Part shown: positions 33,437 through 50,352 of the stretch, piece by piece | Position numbering within the stretch: position 1 is the first letter of the stretch | Layout: each line of letters begins with the position of its first letter | Assembly: GCF_000332275.1 (NCBI RefSeq) | Contig: NZ_CM001776.1 | Coordinates: 2,376,789-2,440,788 of the forward strand | Origin: Synechococcus sp. PCC 7336 | Lineage (GTDB): Bacteria; Cyanobacteriota; Cyanobacteriia; Thermostichales; PCC-7336 | DNA: 64,000 nt | Direction: 5' to 3' | The notes under the pieces: model-generated | The model's database searches: none | The model's input: only the letters and a program-made list of their open reading frames with translations | Told to the model about the DNA's origin: nothing | Translations under genes and position numbers: made by a program

Positions 33437-33973
33437 TCAGTCGGGAAGACCTTCGAAGCGCTCTCCGCGGATTGCCCGAGTCTGAAACTCCTCAAGGGAC
33501 GCCGCAGTGTAGTTTGAGTCGGCTGTACCATTGAATTCTTGGAGGATCGAGAGCGCGCGATCGTACAGATCTCGGTATCCAGAACCAAAGACATGCTTCA
33601 CGGCATTGTCCAGTCTCGCCAGCAGCTCCTGGTGTCTAGCCAGGTCGTATTGGATGTATTCAAACTGGCGAACGTCAACGGGTGCCTTTTCCGGCTCGTC
33701 CTGAGTCAAGAAAATGATAGGCTTCCGGTTTGCCCGCACGATACCCAACTCATAAAAAACGTTGGGATTGGGATATGAAATATCCCCAATAATGAGATCG
33801 GCTTCCTGGATTTCTGATTCGATCTTATCCATGAGTGCCTTTGTAAGAACGCTTGTGTCCCCACGGCGAACCTGCAGTCCGTGCCGATCCTCCAAGTAGA
33901 GCTGAAGGTAAAGGAAAAAGAAGTTCAGCTCCGGACGGAAGGGCATGATGACAAAGCAGATCCGCGTACTCAT
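33437..33973 (-). CDS. TIR/nucleoside 2-deoxyribosyltransferase-like protein, second of a pair
   Basis: This 178-residue protein starts CFVIMPFRPELN, a beta-strand with the typical R/D-rich loop. It then has RRGDTSVLTKALMDKIESEIQEADLIIGDIS, then the conserved NPNVFYELGIVRANRKPIIFL. The Glu in FYELG corresponds to the catalytic Glu of deoxyribosyltransferase and TIR-type NAD hydrolases. The last 45 residues are a polar helical tail. The start overlaps the stop of the upstream paralogue (ATGA at 33970-33973), a sign of co-translation. Families with this fold include NAD-cleaving immune effectors, but no biochemical role can be assigned from sequence. Confidence 0.7.
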   Translation of the reverse strand: MSTRICFVIMPFRPELNFFFLYLQLYLEDRHGLQVRRGDTSVLTKALMDKIESEIQEADLIIGDISYPNPNVFYELGIVRANRKPIIFLTQDEPEKAPVDVRQFEYIQYDLARHQELLARLDNAVKHVFGSGYRDLYDRALSILQEFNGTADSNYTAASLEEFQTRAIRGERFEGLPD

Positions 33974-34386
33974 CGGGTCGTTTCGAGACGACTCTGCATC
34001 GCGCGCACGAGCTTTTCGAGTCGCATCTCTAGTTCTAAGAGGTTTTGGGGATTGTATGTGATGTACTGATAGCCCAGTAGATCGCTGGGAAAACTTCCGT
34101 TACCTTCCGTGCTGACGAGGATAACGATCGGTTTGCGCAGACTATGTGCTACCCCCAGTTCGAAGAAAACATTAGGGTTTGCTTCTGACAAGTCAGCGAT
34201 GATGAAATCGCTCCTACGCAGAGATTCCAACCTCTCGTCAGAACCTCGAGCGCCAGCGACAAACTCTTGGGGTAAAACAGCCACCACAGCCATACGTTCG
34301 AGAACCTCAACGATTAGACTCCTGATGCGATCCTGAGAACGCCCGTAAGGTATCAAGACGAGGCATCTAGAAGTGTCCATCTTCAC
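33970..34386 (-). CDS. TIR/nucleoside 2-deoxyribosyltransferase-like protein, first of a pair
   Basis: This 138-residue protein is a paralogue of the next gene. It starts with CLVLIPYGRSQDRIRSLIVEVLE and contains SLRRSDFIIADLSEANPNVFFELGVAHSLRKPIVILVS, the same NPNVF(F/Y)ELG signature. It is smaller than its partner and lacks the C-terminal tail. GTG at 34386 is chosen because AAAGGG lies eight bases upstream; the ATG at 34380 is also possible. It is the promoter-proximal gene and overlaps its partner by four bases. It could be a sensor or effector of a two-protein system, but this is inference. Confidence 0.68.
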   Translation of the reverse strand: MKMDTSRCLVLIPYGRSQDRIRSLIVEVLERMAVVAVLPQEFVAGARGSDERLESLRRSDFIIADLSEANPNVFFELGVAHSLRKPIVILVSTEGNGSFPSDLLGYQYITYNPQNLLELEMRLEKLVRAMQSRLETTR

Positions 34387-46061: not shown

Positions 46062-46130
46062 TTATGTGCTTTGGAAAAAATAGATCTCGATTTGATTAAT
46101 GGTACTGCTAAAAAAGGGGATGAGAGAACC

Positions 46131-46877
46131 ATGAAATTACAACACAATCTGGGAGGCTTAGAAGGATTAGGTTCGGTTGACTTTCAAAAAAAAGTATTTG
46201 TTGAAGCATGGGAAAAGCGTATCTTTGGCATTCACGCTGCCATGATGGGGCTGAGTAAACACCTCAGTGAGTCTTTGCCTGACTATCCGATCGAACAGGT
46301 GCCTACCCGGTTTCAAGATATTTGGACCTGGGCCGATCTGCGCCGAGGAGCAGAAGCCATGAATCCCTTCGACTACTTCAGGCTGCGATATTACGAAAAA
46401 TGGCTAGGAGGTATCGCTAGTTTCTTTGTCGAGAAAGGCTACATTTCTCAAGCAGAGCTGGATGACAAAATGAGCTTTTATCTGAAGGAGGGAAATGTCG
46501 ATCCGACGCCTTTACCTCAAAAGGATGTCCCTGCTATTGACGAGCAAGTGATTAAGTATCTGCAGTTGGGCGATTCTCCCAAACGTACGGCCGATATTCA
46601 ACCCAAGTTTGCGGTTGGCGATGCCATTATCGTTAAGGATATGCCGGTGGCCGAACATACCCGTCTACCCGGCCACCTGCGGGGTAAATCTGGAGTTGTC
46701 GACTTAGTCTATGATGGCTGTTATGCCTATTTCCCCGGCCCCGCCGATGGCTTGGGACCTGCCCAACCGAGCTATAGCATTCGCTTTGACGTGAAAGATA
46801 TCTGGGGTGACGATTTGGCTGAGCCCGGCTCGGTATTTTACGCCGATCTATTTGAGCTGTATCTTGCTGCCGCATAG
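46131..46877 (+). CDS. nthB: Nitrile hydratase beta subunit
   Basis: This 248-residue protein starts at the ATG at 46131 (MKLQHNLGGLEGLGSV), the usual DLGG-type N-terminus of the beta subunit. FVEAWEKRIFGIHAAMMG, WADLRRGAEAMNPFDYFRLRYYEKWLGGI and the C-terminal FAVGDAIIVKDM, HTRLPGHLRGKSGVVDLVYDG and YSIRFDVKDIWGDD are all family blocks. Nitrile hydratase converts nitriles to amides in the cytoplasm. The beta-alpha order with a small accessory gene after them is typical of cobalt-type operons. The alpha gene follows after 39 bases. Confidence 0.95.
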   Translation: MKLQHNLGGLEGLGSVDFQKKVFVEAWEKRIFGIHAAMMGLSKHLSESLPDYPIEQVPTRFQDIWTWADLRRGAEAMNPFDYFRLRYYEKWLGGIASFFVEKGYISQAELDDKMSFYLKEGNVDPTPLPQKDVPAIDEQVIKYLQLGDSPKRTADIQPKFAVGDAIIVKDMPVAEHTRLPGHLRGKSGVVDLVYDGCYAYFPGPADGLGPAQPSYSIRFDVKDIWGDDLAEPGSVFYADLFELYLAAA

Positions 46878-46916
46878 CTTTACGTGCAACCATTATTGAG
46901 AGAGGGAAGCTTGCCA

Positions 46917-47546
46917 ATGTCTATTCCAGGAGATGAGCGTTTTAGCTACGATACTAATCGCGAGCTTAAAAGTGCTGCAAAAGTTAGAGCATTGGAAGCT
47001 CTTTTGATTGAGAAAGGTATCATCGGCGGCGAAACGGTCAATAAAGTTTTGCAATACTTCGATTCCCAGATGGGGCCGTTCAATGGAGCAAAACTGGTTG
47101 CCCGAGCCTGGGTCGATCCAGAGTTTAAGCAGCGCTTAATTGAAGATTGCAATGCTGTTTGTGCAGAGCTCGACCTTCCAACCGGTATGTCTGGAGCAGA
47201 AGGCGAACACATGCGGGTGGCTGAGAATACCCCTTCGGTGCATAACTTAATTAACTGTACGCTATGTTCTTGCTACCCTTGGCCCACCCTAGGGCTCCCT
47301 CCATACTGGTATAAAGACCCAACCTTTCGAGCGAGAGCGGCCCGCGAACCCAGAGCCGTGCTCAAAGAGTTTGGCCTCGATTTGGATGACTCAGTGCAGA
47401 TTCGAGTGTGGGATAGCAGCGGACAAATCCGCTGGTGGGTCTTGCCCGAACGACCTGCGGGCACAGAGCATATGAGGGAAGAGGAACTGGCTGCTCTGGT
47501 AACGCCGGAGTCCATGATGGGTGTGGCGAAGGTAAAGGCTCCCTAG
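46917..47546 (+). CDS. nthA: Nitrile hydratase alpha subunit, cobalt-type
   Basis: This 209-residue protein starts at the ATG at 46917, preceded by GAGAGAGGGAAG. The active-site metal motif reads C114-T-L-C117-S-C119, then YPWPTLGLPPYWYKDP. Thr after the first Cys is the mark of cobalt-type enzymes (iron-type has Ser). Cys117 and Cys119 should be the oxidised sulfinic and sulfenic ligands. The C-terminus has REPRAVLKEFGLDL and WWVLPERPAGTEHM, which are conserved. It lies between the beta subunit and the accessory gene. Product amides could feed nitrogen assimilation through an amidase, though none is seen in the window. Confidence 0.96.
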   Translation: MSIPGDERFSYDTNRELKSAAKVRALEALLIEKGIIGGETVNKVLQYFDSQMGPFNGAKLVARAWVDPEFKQRLIEDCNAVCAELDLPTGMSGAEGEHMRVAENTPSVHNLINCTLCSCYPWPTLGLPPYWYKDPTFRARAAREPRAVLKEFGLDLDDSVQIRVWDSSGQIRWWVLPERPAGTEHMREEELAALVTPESMMGVAKVKAP

Positions 47547-47565
47547 TGATTGTGTTGGTTGCATT

Positions 47566-47922
47566 ATGTTTACTCAATTCGAACACTTTGCGGCTTCTAG
47601 CCTGATGGGTTCTGAGGAAGCTCTACCCCGCGAGAATGGCCAGCTTGCCTTTAATCGCAGTTGGGAACAAGTTGCATTTGCCCTGGCGATCGCCCTCTCT
47701 AAAAAGGGCTATTACGAATGGGAAGAGTTTCGTCAGAATCTGATCGACACGATTCGCGAGTGGGAGTCAGACCATGACTTGGACGATCCAACTTGGGATT
47801 ACTACCAACGCTGGTATGCGGTCCTAGAGAAGTTAGCGTTGGAGTCGGGCGCGATCGATCGGGCAGAACTTGAGGAGAAGGTCGCAATCCTGTTAGCCTG
47901 CGAGCCTATCCACGAGGAATAG
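47566..47922 (+). CDS. Nitrile hydratase accessory protein
   Basis: This 118-residue protein starts with ATG, 19 bases after the alpha gene. It resembles the N-terminal part of the beta subunit in its helix FNRSWEQVAFALAIALSKKGYYEWEEFRQNLID and in DPTWDYYQRWYAVLEKLALESG. This matches the small activator proteins of cobalt-type nitrile hydratase, which form a complex with the alpha subunit and deliver metal by subunit exchange. Its presence together with a CobW-like protein upstream is unusual and may mean two metal-loading routes. Confidence 0.9.
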   Translation: MFTQFEHFAASSLMGSEEALPRENGQLAFNRSWEQVAFALAIALSKKGYYEWEEFRQNLIDTIREWESDHDLDDPTWDYYQRWYAVLEKLALESGAIDRAELEEKVAILLACEPIHEE

Positions 47923-48014: not shown

Positions 48015-48629
48015 TTATGCGCGTGCCTCAACCCACTGCTCCATGAAGCGCATCAATTCAGCGATCGATAGCCGCTCGATATTCCGTGGAGAGAACCCTC
48101 GGGCCGTCAGCTCATCATAGTTGTCAGCCATGAAGTCGGTAAACGCGCCCCATATTGCCGCGGGGCCATCGGCTGCCAAATTGGCTTCGTGATTCAGCCA
48201 GTTTCGGACTACAGCGACAATTTCTTCTGGCTCATTTTCATGGACTTCGATGTCTGAACCAGAAACGTCAGAAAGTGCGGCCTGGTAGCGGTGGCGCTCC
48301 GCCTCAAGTATCAGACATTTCTTTTCCGACGATTCCCCACCCTTGAAGCGTCGGCACCCGAAATCTATGCCAAGTTCAAACGGCATGTTGAGCCGGTAGA
48401 ACTCTCCCGCTGTTTCAGCTTTTAACCTGGACAGGTCGTGAATTGAATACTTCGATTCTTCAATGAGTCCGATGATTTTCTCAATACGAACTTCAGCAGA
48501 ATTTAGGCGCTCCAGCGCAATTCGCGGCGTGAAGCCAAGATAATAGATTGTGAATAGTAGTGGGCGAAGGAGTGGCCGAAATTTATCGTCGAATGGACAA
48601 TTGACGAATACGTTACGTTCAAATGTCAT
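48015..48629 (-). CDS. TIR/deoxyribosyltransferase-like protein downstream of a DUF2188 gene
   Basis: This 204-residue protein starts VFVNCPFDDKFRPLLRPLLFTIYYLG. It continues with IGLIEESKYSIHDLSRLKAETAGEFYRLNMPFELGIDFG, then LSDVSGSDIEVHENEP and VVRNWLN. HDLS plus NMPFELG parallels DLSEANPNVFFELG of the pair at 33437-34386, so a Rossmann-type nucleotide-recognition fold with a conserved Glu is likely. The C-terminal 60 residues are helical. GGAG precedes the ATG by four bases. It lies 14 bases after the DUF2188 gene. The function is unknown; NAD-linked immunity is a hypothesis. Confidence 0.72.
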   Translation of the reverse strand: MTFERNVFVNCPFDDKFRPLLRPLLFTIYYLGFTPRIALERLNSAEVRIEKIIGLIEESKYSIHDLSRLKAETAGEFYRLNMPFELGIDFGCRRFKGGESSEKKCLILEAERHRYQAALSDVSGSDIEVHENEPEEIVAVVRNWLNHEANLAADGPAAIWGAFTDFMADNYDELTARGFSPRNIERLSIAELMRFMEQWVEARA

Positions 48630-48643
48630 TCACTCCAGCGCCC

Positions 48644-48919
48644 TTAGCCCCGCGGCGGATGGGGATCCTGGCCGTAGCTATCTCTTTGGCGGATAGTTCC
48701 ATCCTTACGGTGGATGTACAGCTCTGCGTGTTCCTTCTTAGCAAGGTCTCGCGCGAATTTTTCCGCGGCCTTCTGGGTGTCGAAGACGCGTGTGGCCCGC
48801 TCAGCACCCGATTTCCGTACGGCCCAACCGCCCTTCAGGCTAGGAACTACGTGTCTTCCAGTCTTGCTCACGGTCGATGCCCTTGGATGCTTCACGGTGT
48901 GTCGCTTATTGTAGCGCAT
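48644..48919 (-). CDS. DUF2188-domain protein
   Basis: This 91-residue protein starts at the ATG at 48919 (MRYNKRHTVKHPRAST). The DUF2188 core is GRHVVPSLKGGWAVRKSGAERATRVFDTQKAAEKFARDLAKKEHAELYIHRKDGTIRQRDSYGQDPHPP. That matches the usual HVVPxxDGWAVxxEGxxRAxxxFxTKxEAxxxAR pattern with the GRIxxxxSYGxDPxP end. No strong ribosome site precedes the ATG. DUF2188 proteins are small and basic, of unknown function. It stands between the DUF1173-like gene (26 bases upstream) and the TIR-like gene (14 bases downstream), all on one strand. Confidence 0.85.
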   Translation of the reverse strand: MRYNKRHTVKHPRASTVSKTGRHVVPSLKGGWAVRKSGAERATRVFDTQKAAEKFARDLAKKEHAELYIHRKDGTIRQRDSYGQDPHPPRG

Positions 48920-48945
48920 AACTATAGTTTGGCGAGGATGCGAGA

Positions 48946-50352
48946 TTACTGAAATATTCGCTCGATCGCCTGGGTCAGGGCCTGTTGAAACGCGCGTTTC
49001 CGTCTGGGGGTGAGAGGCTGGCTCCAATCCAAGGGAATCACTTCGCCCAATTCCGCCATGCGAGGGTGAGTTCTATCTTTGCGTGCTAGATACGCCGAGT
49101 TGTCAAATCCCATCGTTTCCACCACAATGTTGTGCTGTCCTTTGCGGTCGAGGCGATCGCGATAGAGGACAAAATCCGGTCGGTAAGGCTCCCCCTCACT
49201 CGACGCAAAATCGTGCAAGGGTTTGGTAACGGTCAGAGGGATACCCTGCCGACAAACCAATCTCTGCAACTCCAGTAACAGCGCCAGGGTTTGCCGCTCG
49301 GCATCGCTATCCACCGGCACCAGCAGGGAAGTGCTGTAAACGGGATGGGTATACGCCTGCCGCAAGACATACTGTCCCGGTGCGAGTTTGCTTTCGCCAA
49401 GCTGGGCGATCGCCCAGTAGGGGGCCGAGCGGTGGGAATGAGGGGGAGCAAAGCAAATGGGGGGCTCTTCAATCGCGATCGAGTCGGGTTTCCCCACAAA
49501 ATAGAGCTGGCGACGCTCGATATCCACTTGACTGGCAAGGCCCACAAACCAAGCTTGGGGTTTGACGTGCGGCGGCCAGTCGCCCCCGCCCCGAGACAGA
49601 AGTGCTTCCAATCGCTGGCATCCTGCCGCGATCGCCTCGGGCTCCGTTGTCAAATAGTGTCGCAGGGGAATGCGATTGATGATGTGGCGTTTGGTGCGCT
49701 GCAGGCGGCGGTACTGCTGCTGGGGATAATTCGATCGCCGCCACCAGCCGGGACGAATGACATTGAGCTGAGCTTCTTCTAAGAGCGTAAACAGCATGCG
49801 GGCCAGCTTGGGCCAGCGATGGGAACGACGGCGATCCGTTTGGATGGCCAGTTGGGTGGGCTGTTGGCTGACCGGGCGAGCCTCGGGCGCTCGATCGGTC
49901 AGATCGAGCACAAAGCTGGTGCTTGAAGCTAAAGGTCTGAGGGCATGGCCCACTTGCGAGGCTGAGCGAGAGTTTGGGAGAGAGGATTCTGGCCTAGTGC
50001 GATCGAAGGCAAACCGATCTTCCAGTCGGTCGGGAATATGAAAAATGCAGGTGGGATGGTGGGGAAATTGCGATCGAATGCGTCGAAAGGAATAACGGCT
50101 TCCCCAACTGTCTAGCTGAATGGGGCAGAGCAGCGGTTGGCGATCGGCTTCCCCCTGGCAGTCGCAGGCGATCCACAAATGGCGATCGCGCAGCCGCTTG
50201 AGAACTTCGGCAATCTGGGCATCCAATCGGAACGTGCGCTCGCCTCGAAGCTGAGAATCATACCACTGATTGAAGAGAGCTTCGTCGCCTGCGACAGACT
50301 CCCCTGCGGGGAGAAGAGGCTGACCGGGTTTGGTTTTACGGACGATCCGCAT
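48946..50352 (-). CDS. DUF1173-like protein, typical of integrative elements, with possible nuclease domain
   Basis: This 468-residue protein has a Cys/His cluster near the N-terminus (IACDCQGEADRQPLLC, then HHPTCIFH), which may bind zinc. The centre has RMLFTLLEEAQLNVIRPGWWRR. The C-terminal region has YRPDFVLYRDRL, then IVVETMGFDNSAYLARKDRTHPRMAELGE, a PD-x..E-x-like arrangement suggestive of a restriction-endonuclease fold. This matches my recollection of the DUF1173 family, which is often found in integrative and conjugative elements, but no search was run. It is the first gene of a minus-strand trio with DUF2188 and TIR-like genes. Confidence 0.6.
   Translation of the reverse strand: MRIVRKTKPGQPLLPAGESVAGDEALFNQWYDSQLRGERTFRLDAQIAEVLKRLRDRHLWIACDCQGEADRQPLLCPIQLDSWGSRYSFRRIRSQFPHHPTCIFHIPDRLEDRFAFDRTRPESSLPNSRSASQVGHALRPLASSTSFVLDLTDRAPEARPVSQQPTQLAIQTDRRRSHRWPKLARMLFTLLEEAQLNVIRPGWWRRSNYPQQQYRRLQRTKRHIINRIPLRHYLTTEPEAIAAGCQRLEALLSRGGGDWPPHVKPQAWFVGLASQVDIERRQLYFVGKPDSIAIEEPPICFAPPHSHRSAPYWAIAQLGESKLAPGQYVLRQAYTHPVYSTSLLVPVDSDAERQTLALLLELQRLVCRQGIPLTVTKPLHDFASSEGEPYRPDFVLYRDRLDRKGQHNIVVETMGFDNSAYLARKDRTHPRMAELGEVIPLDWSQPLTPRRKRAFQQALTQAIERIFQ

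What the first reader, a model, noticed from the sequence alone, without database searches (positions are those of the whole stretch)
48015..50352. Same-strand trio of DUF1173-like, DUF2188 and TIR-like genes
Gaps of 26 and 14 bases suggest one transcription unit. The first protein has a Cys/His cluster and a possible PD-(D/E)XK-type C-terminal half, the second is a small basic DUF2188 protein and the third has the SIHDLS...NMPFELG signature. The third shares its core motif order with the pair at 33437-34386, although it is otherwise very different. A DNA-facing protein plus a nucleotide-recognition protein resembles the logic of defence or element-maintenance operons. No integrase or conjugation gene is present, so it is not a complete mobile element.
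Basis: partly seen in the sequence, partly recalled or inferred. Interest (0 to 1): 0.6.

Follow-up and report, generated by a model that had tools for sequence, protein, structure and literature searches.

The report
Mobile DUF2188–TIR/NDT-like two-gene immune module
Two of the three neighbouring genes form a tiny gene pair that travels as a unit across distant bacterial phyla and looks like a regulated, NAD- or nucleotide-destroying defence or toxin–antitoxin module; the third gene is an unrelated plasmid gene that happens to lie next to it.

Summary
The three same-strand genes exist as described, but they are two things, not one. Gene 1 (P0001) is a relative of plasmid-backbone YagA (IncI, Sphingobium and Rhizobium plasmids), with a conserved CxC…HxxC cluster and a PD-(D/E)XK-like C-terminus. 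It is not DUF1173, and none of the loci encoding relatives of gene 3 has it. Genes 2 and 3 are a real unit. DUF2188 (PADLOC candidate PDC-S16) lies directly upstream in 18 of 18 testable close relatives of gene 3 (five phyla besides the window's), mostly between different housekeeping genes. Gene 3 belongs to a family that no Pfam or PADLOC model detects. Its predicted fold is that of DNPH1, NDT and TIR N-glycosidases (Z 12–15). The nucleophile Glu (E85) and an Arg six residues before it are invariant in 25 of 25 relatives, and a Phe stands where deoxy-specific enzymes seem to have Tyr, which favours NAD+. A sister subfamily has a different small basic upstream gene. Some DUF2188 genes without this partner stand by Pycsar, patatin, Thoeris/TIR, type I RM and ubiquitin-like genes. 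Best reading: a horizontally spread two-gene module in which the small basic protein controls an N-glycosidase/NADase effector. Enzyme activity and anti-phage function are untested.

The parts
48644..48871 (-). DUF2188 / PDC-S16 small basic protein (75 aa from the homology-supported GTG start; the ATG ORF extends to 48919, 91 aa): proposed antitoxin/regulator/adaptor
   Evidence: Pfam DUF2188 3.5e-24; PADLOC PDC-S16 4e-33; start by alignment of 17 relatives; dN/dS 0.15 between two Methylorubrum copies; pI 10.3
48015..48629 (-). Effector of an unnamed TIR/NDT/DNPH1-superfamily family (204 aa): Rossmann-like domain about 1-150 with F8, R79 and E85, plus a C-terminal helical part about 156-204
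   Evidence: AF2 pLDDT 86; VIA-align Z 14.6 DNPH1, 13.0 BcmB, 13.2 SPARTA TIR, 12.7 AbTir; 0/14 members match Pfam or PADLOC; 20 invariant residues in 25/25 relatives; dN/dS 0.14
48908..48935 (-). promoter-like site (TCGCCA-16-TACAAT) that could serve the pair independently of gene 1
   Evidence: consensus match 9/12 only; not evidence of function
48946..50352 (-). Neighbour, not part of the module: YagA-like plasmid protein with CxC...HxxC cluster and PD-(D/E)XK-like C-terminus
   Evidence: tblastn to 1368 plasmid records, many annotated YagA; motif alignment; absent from all pair loci and from 291 other cyanobacterial genomes

Best explanation
Window 48015-48871 is a self-contained, horizontally mobile two-gene module. 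The downstream protein is an enzyme of the TIR/NDT/DNPH1 superfamily. It most likely cleaves an N-glycosidic bond, NAD+ being the favoured substrate and a nucleotide the alternative, using the invariant Glu85. The upstream DUF2188 protein is probably translated from the same transcript, carries opposite charge and probably binds the effector, holding it inactive (antitoxin-like) until phage infection or another stress releases it, giving growth arrest or abortive infection. Shown here: the conserved pairing, the fold match, invariant catalytic-site residues, purifying selection and patchy cross-phylum distribution. Inferred: co-transcription, substrate, complex formation, direction of control and defence role. 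The YagA-like gene is a neighbour and not a component.
For: Pairing: DUF2188 directly upstream in 18/18 testable subfamily-I loci: 14 GTDB loci plus L021, L027, L051, L052; gaps 2-39 bp where measured. G000 has exactly one DUF2188 gene and it is this one. Flanking genes are mostly unrelated housekeeping genes that differ in almost every locus. Fold and active site; E85, R79, F8, H64, D65 and N81 invariant in 25/25. NADase TIRs usually have Phe or Ala where NDT/DNPH1 have Tyr (PMC11204291). A sister subfamily keeps the architecture with another small basic upstream protein, and L105 links the two. Both genes are under purifying selection, dN/dS 0.14 and 0.15. Effector interrupted with DUF2188 intact in L009, L017, L019 and L027, and a decayed second effector lies elsewhere in G000. 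Other DUF2188 genes stand next to immune effectors.
Against: Flanks of the pairs show no clear defence-island enrichment over control regions. The fused-pair AF2 model has pTM 0.67 and shows no reliable interface. DUF2188 also occurs without this effector, often in unremarkable contexts, so its role need not be antitoxin. Three of the broken effectors are in MAGs and may be sequencing errors. The Phe-Tyr correspondence is read from alignment offsets, not from a residue-level structural alignment. No activity data exist.
Confidence: 0.5

Rival explanations
1. DUF2188 is a sensor/adaptor (DNA- or phage-component-binding) that activates the effector, rather than an antitoxin that restrains it; the effector alone is inert.
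For: TIR-type effectors can be activated through domains that sense phage parts (Swarozyc: PMC13174449). DUF2188 stands next to effectors as different as Pycsar, patatin and type I RM, easier for a generic accessory or sensor than for a dedicated antitoxin. It is basic, predicted bbb-a-bb, and the Pfam DUF2188 model picks up the N-terminus of an integrase weakly (L071).
Against: Small upstream basic partner, exchange of the partner between subfamilies, intact partner beside broken effectors and a DUF2188 stretch at the C-terminus of a protein annotated 'antitoxin' next to a BrnT-like toxin fit an antitoxin better.
Confidence: 0.25
2. The effector is a DNPH1-like nucleotide N-hydrolase that destroys (modified) deoxynucleotides, attacking phage DNA precursors or sanitising the host pool, rather than NAD+.
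For: Highest structural Z scores are to DNPH1, with the CMP hydrolases BcmB and MilB also high; invariant Arg79 near Glu85 could bind a phosphate (inference).
Against: Phe8 appears to stand where deoxy-specific DNPH1/NDT have Tyr. Z for NADase TIRs (AbTir, SPARTA) is within about 2 units.
Confidence: 0.15
3. DUF2188 (PDC-S16) is an independent single-gene defence or DNA-binding gene that merely travels next to many effectors.
For: PADLOC lists it with a single-gene candidate label; it stands without this effector in Streptococcus prophages and Klebsiella plasmids; most sampled DUF2188 genes lack this effector.
Against: Subfamily-I effectors never occur without it in 18/18 testable loci.
Confidence: 0.06
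4. One reading: one three-gene operon including the YagA-like nuclease.
For: Same strand, short gap, no terminator-like site found in the region.
Against: No P0001 relative near any of the 16 gene-3 relatives; the P0001 relatives inspected sit near plasmid replication or stability genes without DUF2188; a promoter-like match lies between.
Confidence: 0.04

Closest known systems
TIR-type NADase effectors of bacterial immunity (AbTir, SPARTA TIR, Thoeris ThsB, CAP12/Pycsar TIR; DUF4062/Swarozyc, PMC13174449)
   Same: Same Rossmann-like fold (Z 12-13 to AbTir and SPARTA TIR), conserved catalytic-type Glu, patchy cross-phylum distribution
   Different: No match to any TIR, CAP12 or ThsB Pfam or PADLOC model; stand-alone 204-aa protein with a short C-terminal helical part and a small upstream partner gene in every testable close relative
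DNPH1 / nucleoside 2'-deoxyribosyltransferase family (DNPH1, CtNDT, BcmB, MilB)
   Same: Best structural scores (Z 14.6); ELG motif with nucleophile Glu at the start of the following helix
   Different: Phe apparently at the position of the deoxy-specificity Tyr; invariant Arg six residues before the Glu, where human DNPH1 has Ser (recalled, not tested)
PADLOC PDC-S16 (DUF2188)
   Same: Gene 2 and all 16 aligned relatives next to this effector match both PDC-S16 models
   Different: PDC-S16 carries a single-gene label; here the protein is one half of a conserved pair whose effector PADLOC does not model
NADase toxin-antitoxin systems (NatR-NatT, PMC11535050; RES-Xre)
   Same: Proposed two-gene NAD-depleting toxin with small regulator
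   Different: Unrelated toxin fold (RES there, TIR/NDT-like here; from general knowledge); toxicity not tested here
YagA of IncI plasmids (for gene 1 only)
   Same: About 25-32% identity over 83-93% in the better hits, shared CxC, HxxC, PDF and VVETMG-region motifs
   Different: Here on a cyanobacterial chromosome, not in a plasmid stability region (PMC4541600)

Membership tests
DUF2188 / PADLOC PDC-S16 | match to the family model over its length | tested here: met
   Pfam 3.5e-24, 2-62/62; PDC-S16 4.3e-33, 4-75/75; 17/17 members
DUF2188 / PADLOC PDC-S16 | anti-phage activity | not testable with these tools
   no paper on PDC-S16 found; most PDCs are unvalidated (PMC12988326)
TIR-domain NADases | TIR-type Rossmann fold | tested here: met
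   AbTir Z 12.7, SPARTA TIR Z 13.2, RPPT-TIR Z 12.8, on a pLDDT 86 model
TIR-domain NADases | match to a TIR, CAP12 or ThsB family model | tested here: not met
   0/14 members at E 0.01 in Pfam and PADLOC; filed as superfamily kin only
TIR-domain NADases | conserved catalytic Glu | tested here: met
   E85 invariant in 25/25
TIR-domain NADases | NAD+ hydrolysis | not testable with these tools
   needs enzyme assay
DNPH1/NDT | fold | tested here: met
   Z 14.6 DNPH1, 12.5 CtNDT
DNPH1/NDT | Tyr next to the catalytic Glu (deoxy specificity) | tested here: inconclusive
   alignment offsets place invariant F8 at Tyr24 (human), Tyr13 (rat), Tyr7 (CtNDT) in several rows, one or two off in others; no residue-level structural alignment
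Type II toxin-antitoxin | small partner gene directly next to the toxin gene, conserved together | tested here: met
   18/18, gaps 2-39 bp
Type II toxin-antitoxin | toxicity of one protein neutralised by the other | not testable with these tools
   needs expression test
Type II toxin-antitoxin | protein-protein complex | tested here: inconclusive
   single-chain read-through model pTM 0.67, no interface read-out; opposite charges only
DUF1173 (gene 1) | Pfam DUF1173 match | tested here: not met
   none at E 1 for P0001, none at 0.01 for two YagA relatives
YagA-like plasmid proteins (gene 1) | near full-length similarity and shared motifs | tested here: met

The most novel reading that the evidence does not exclude
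DUF2188 proteins are a general, exchangeable control subunit of bacterial immunity: one small basic fold that restrains or triggers otherwise unrelated effectors (an unnamed TIR/NDT NADase family, patatins, ThsB/TIR, Pycsar, ubiquitin-like operons). The window holds its minimal two-gene form, a new toxin-antitoxin-like defence system.
Probability: 0.25. Interest if true: 0.8.

Novelty: new variant of a known kind. Interest (0 to 1): 0.58.

Why it matters
It attaches an unmodelled TIR/NDT effector family, invisible to the Pfam and PADLOC copies searched, to a candidate defence gene whose function is unknown, and gives a 0.9-kb two-gene unit small enough to test in one cloning step. If DUF2188 proves to be a common controller of different effectors, it would explain why this orphan domain recurs next to Pycsar, patatin, Thoeris-like and type I RM genes.

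Tried and rejected
DUF1173 for gene 1: no match. A YagA-family profile against the PDB gave nothing above noise. P0001 and the gene-3 family in IMG/VR: none; gene 3 in phage records: none. A gene-3 hit in another cyanobacterium (L002) proved to be a response-regulator/histidine-kinase gene in another frame. The conserved DUF2188 tail (YGNDPxPPKG) was first taken as an effector-binding signature, but DUF2188 genes without this effector have it too, so dropped. Defence-island enrichment around the pairs: not clearly above control. Fused read-through model for an interface: inconclusive. Low HIP1 content of the pair (0 sites, 1.4 expected) is too small a sample to prove recent transfer.

Full report
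What is there. P0002 is DUF2188 (E 3.5e-24) and matches PADLOC's PDC-S16 models almost end to end. Nearly all its relatives begin where a GTG at 48871 aligns. The first 16 residues of the ATG ORF are therefore probably not translated, and the gap to gene 1 is about 74 bp, with a promoter-like match between the two starts (consensus only). P0003 matches no Pfam, NCBIfam or PADLOC family above noise, and none of 14 aligned relatives matches Pfam or PADLOC.

The trio splits. A scan of GTDB species genomes gave 16 relatives of P0003 from Pseudomonadota, Acidobacteriota, Bacteroidota, Myxococcota and Calditrichota (phylum names of several). Fourteen have a DUF2188 gene immediately upstream on the same strand. 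Of the other two, one contig starts at the gene, and one (L018, 35% identity) is the most divergent and belongs to another subfamily. Four further close relatives, on plasmids and in other alphaproteobacteria, also have it (L021, L027, L051, L052). So 18 of 18 testable close relatives are paired, with gaps of 2–39 bp where measured. G000 has exactly one DUF2188 gene, this one. No P0001 relative occurs in any of the 16 GTDB loci. The genes flanking the pair are mostly housekeeping genes that differ from locus to locus (RadA/CvpA/PurF cluster, IspG, RnfC-like and others, judged from Pfam tallies and by reading); only the two Methylorubrum loci and L009 share neighbours. The pair is therefore a bare two-gene unit that moves on its own. 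It was found in 1 of 244 cyanobacterial genomes, its own, and the wider effector family in 5 of 289 alphaproteobacteria (two of these five, G380 and G602, carry only the sister subfamily).

Gene 1. P0001 has no relative in 291 other cyanobacterial genomes but matches 1368 plasmid records. Many of the enterobacterial ones are annotated YagA, and the one inspected is an IncI-gamma/K1 plasmid. A Sphingobium relative sits near a replication initiator. YagA is described as part of the plasmid stability region of IncI1 plasmids (PMC4541600).

What gene 3 is. With an alignment of 14 sequences AlphaFold2 gave pLDDT 86. Foldseek ranked CtNDT, TIR domains and SPARTA near the top, without any E below 0.001. 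VIA-align scored DNPH1 14.6, BcmB 13.0, SPARTA TIR 13.2, AbTir 12.7 and NDT 12.5 over about 118–137 residues. In 25 sequences spanning two subfamilies these are invariant: F8, N10, C11, F13, D14, R48, I63, H64, D65, R68, R79, N81, M82, P83, E85, L86, G87, K103, D121, D126 and H130. E85 lies in the ELG motif of the superfamily. Alignment offsets in several rows place F8 opposite Tyr24 of human DNPH1, Tyr13 of rat DNPH1 and Tyr7 of CtNDT; others are one or two off. Deoxy-specific enzymes keep this Tyr, while NADase TIRs usually have Phe or Ala there (PMC11204291). This favours a ribose substrate such as NAD+; it is inference.

What gene 2 does. DUF2188 is basic (charge about +8 at pH 7) and the effector acidic (about −9). 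The predicted fold is βββαββ. A sister effector subfamily on plasmids and in alphaproteobacteria lacks DUF2188 but has a different small basic gene in the same place. In L105, which branches first in that sister clade (tree, support not decisive), the upstream gene is DUF2188 followed by the same C-terminal helix-like motif. In L009, L017, L019 and L027 the effector is broken while DUF2188 is intact, and G000 carries a decayed effector remnant at C1:2902975–2903184. Both genes are under purifying selection, dN/dS 0.14 and 0.15 between two Methylorubrum copies. These are the habits of a toxin–antitoxin-like pair, but a sensor/activator role is not excluded.

Wider context. DUF2188 genes without this effector were examined in alphaproteobacteria, acidobacteria, cyanobacteria and plasmids. 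Several stand directly before, or a gene or two away from, immune effectors: patatin (L035, L080), multiubiquitin/ThiF operons (L058, L081), ThsB/TIR (L065, L089, L095), Pycsar cyclase + TM effector (L111) and type I restriction (L116, and by sequence resemblance L119). Several have a divergent HTH and/or ImmA/IrrE gene (annotated; by reading). These are selected examples; many DUF2188 genes have unremarkable neighbours, and no formal enrichment was computed. Flanks of the pairs themselves are not clearly richer in defence genes than control regions.

Verdict. The pairing is real and strongly conserved. The effector family is undescribed by the model libraries searched. An N-glycosidase/NADase effector held by a small partner is the best explanation (about 0.5). 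In the held library I found no paper on DUF2188 function (seven papers with passing mentions, judged from titles and abstracts) and none that mentions PDC-S16; subscription papers and most preprints are not held.

Noticed in passing
window 33437-34386 (-): Tandem genes overlapping by 4 bp, both of the NDT/TIR superfamily; P0005 hits the CAP12/Pycsar TIR model (6.7e-6), Nuc_deoxyrib_tr (1.2e-6) and PADLOC TIR effectors, and weakly DNPH1 in the PDB.
   Followed up: partly
L031 1501-1716 (G000:C1:2902975-2903184): Decayed C-terminal remnant of a second gene-3-like effector in the same genome, by eye most like the L010 lineage, with no DUF2188 beside it.
   Followed up: partly
L111, L035, L080, L065, L089, L095, L116, L119, L058, L081: DUF2188 genes stand before or close to Pycsar, patatin, ThsB/TIR, type I RM and ubiquitin-like/ThiF genes.
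   Followed up: partly
L035, L058-L060, L062, L079-L081: A divergent HTH and/or ImmA/IrrE metalloprotease gene lies upstream of DUF2188, suggesting stress-controlled expression (annotated; by reading).
   Followed up: no
L073 3632-4225: In a Mycobacterium abscessus prophage a DUF2188-like stretch lies at the C-terminal end of a protein annotated antitoxin, next to a BrnT-like toxin.
   Followed up: no
L027 6990-8569: Sinorhizobium fredii plasmid copy: effector split by an insert of about 680 bp, DUF2188 intact.
   Followed up: no
L022: A sister-subfamily effector on a Sphingomonas plasmid lies a few genes from TniB/TniQ/Mu-type transposase genes.
   Followed up: no
window 46071-47922 (+): Nitrile-hydratase-like genes next to the finding, judged by reading the sequence only.
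   Followed up: no
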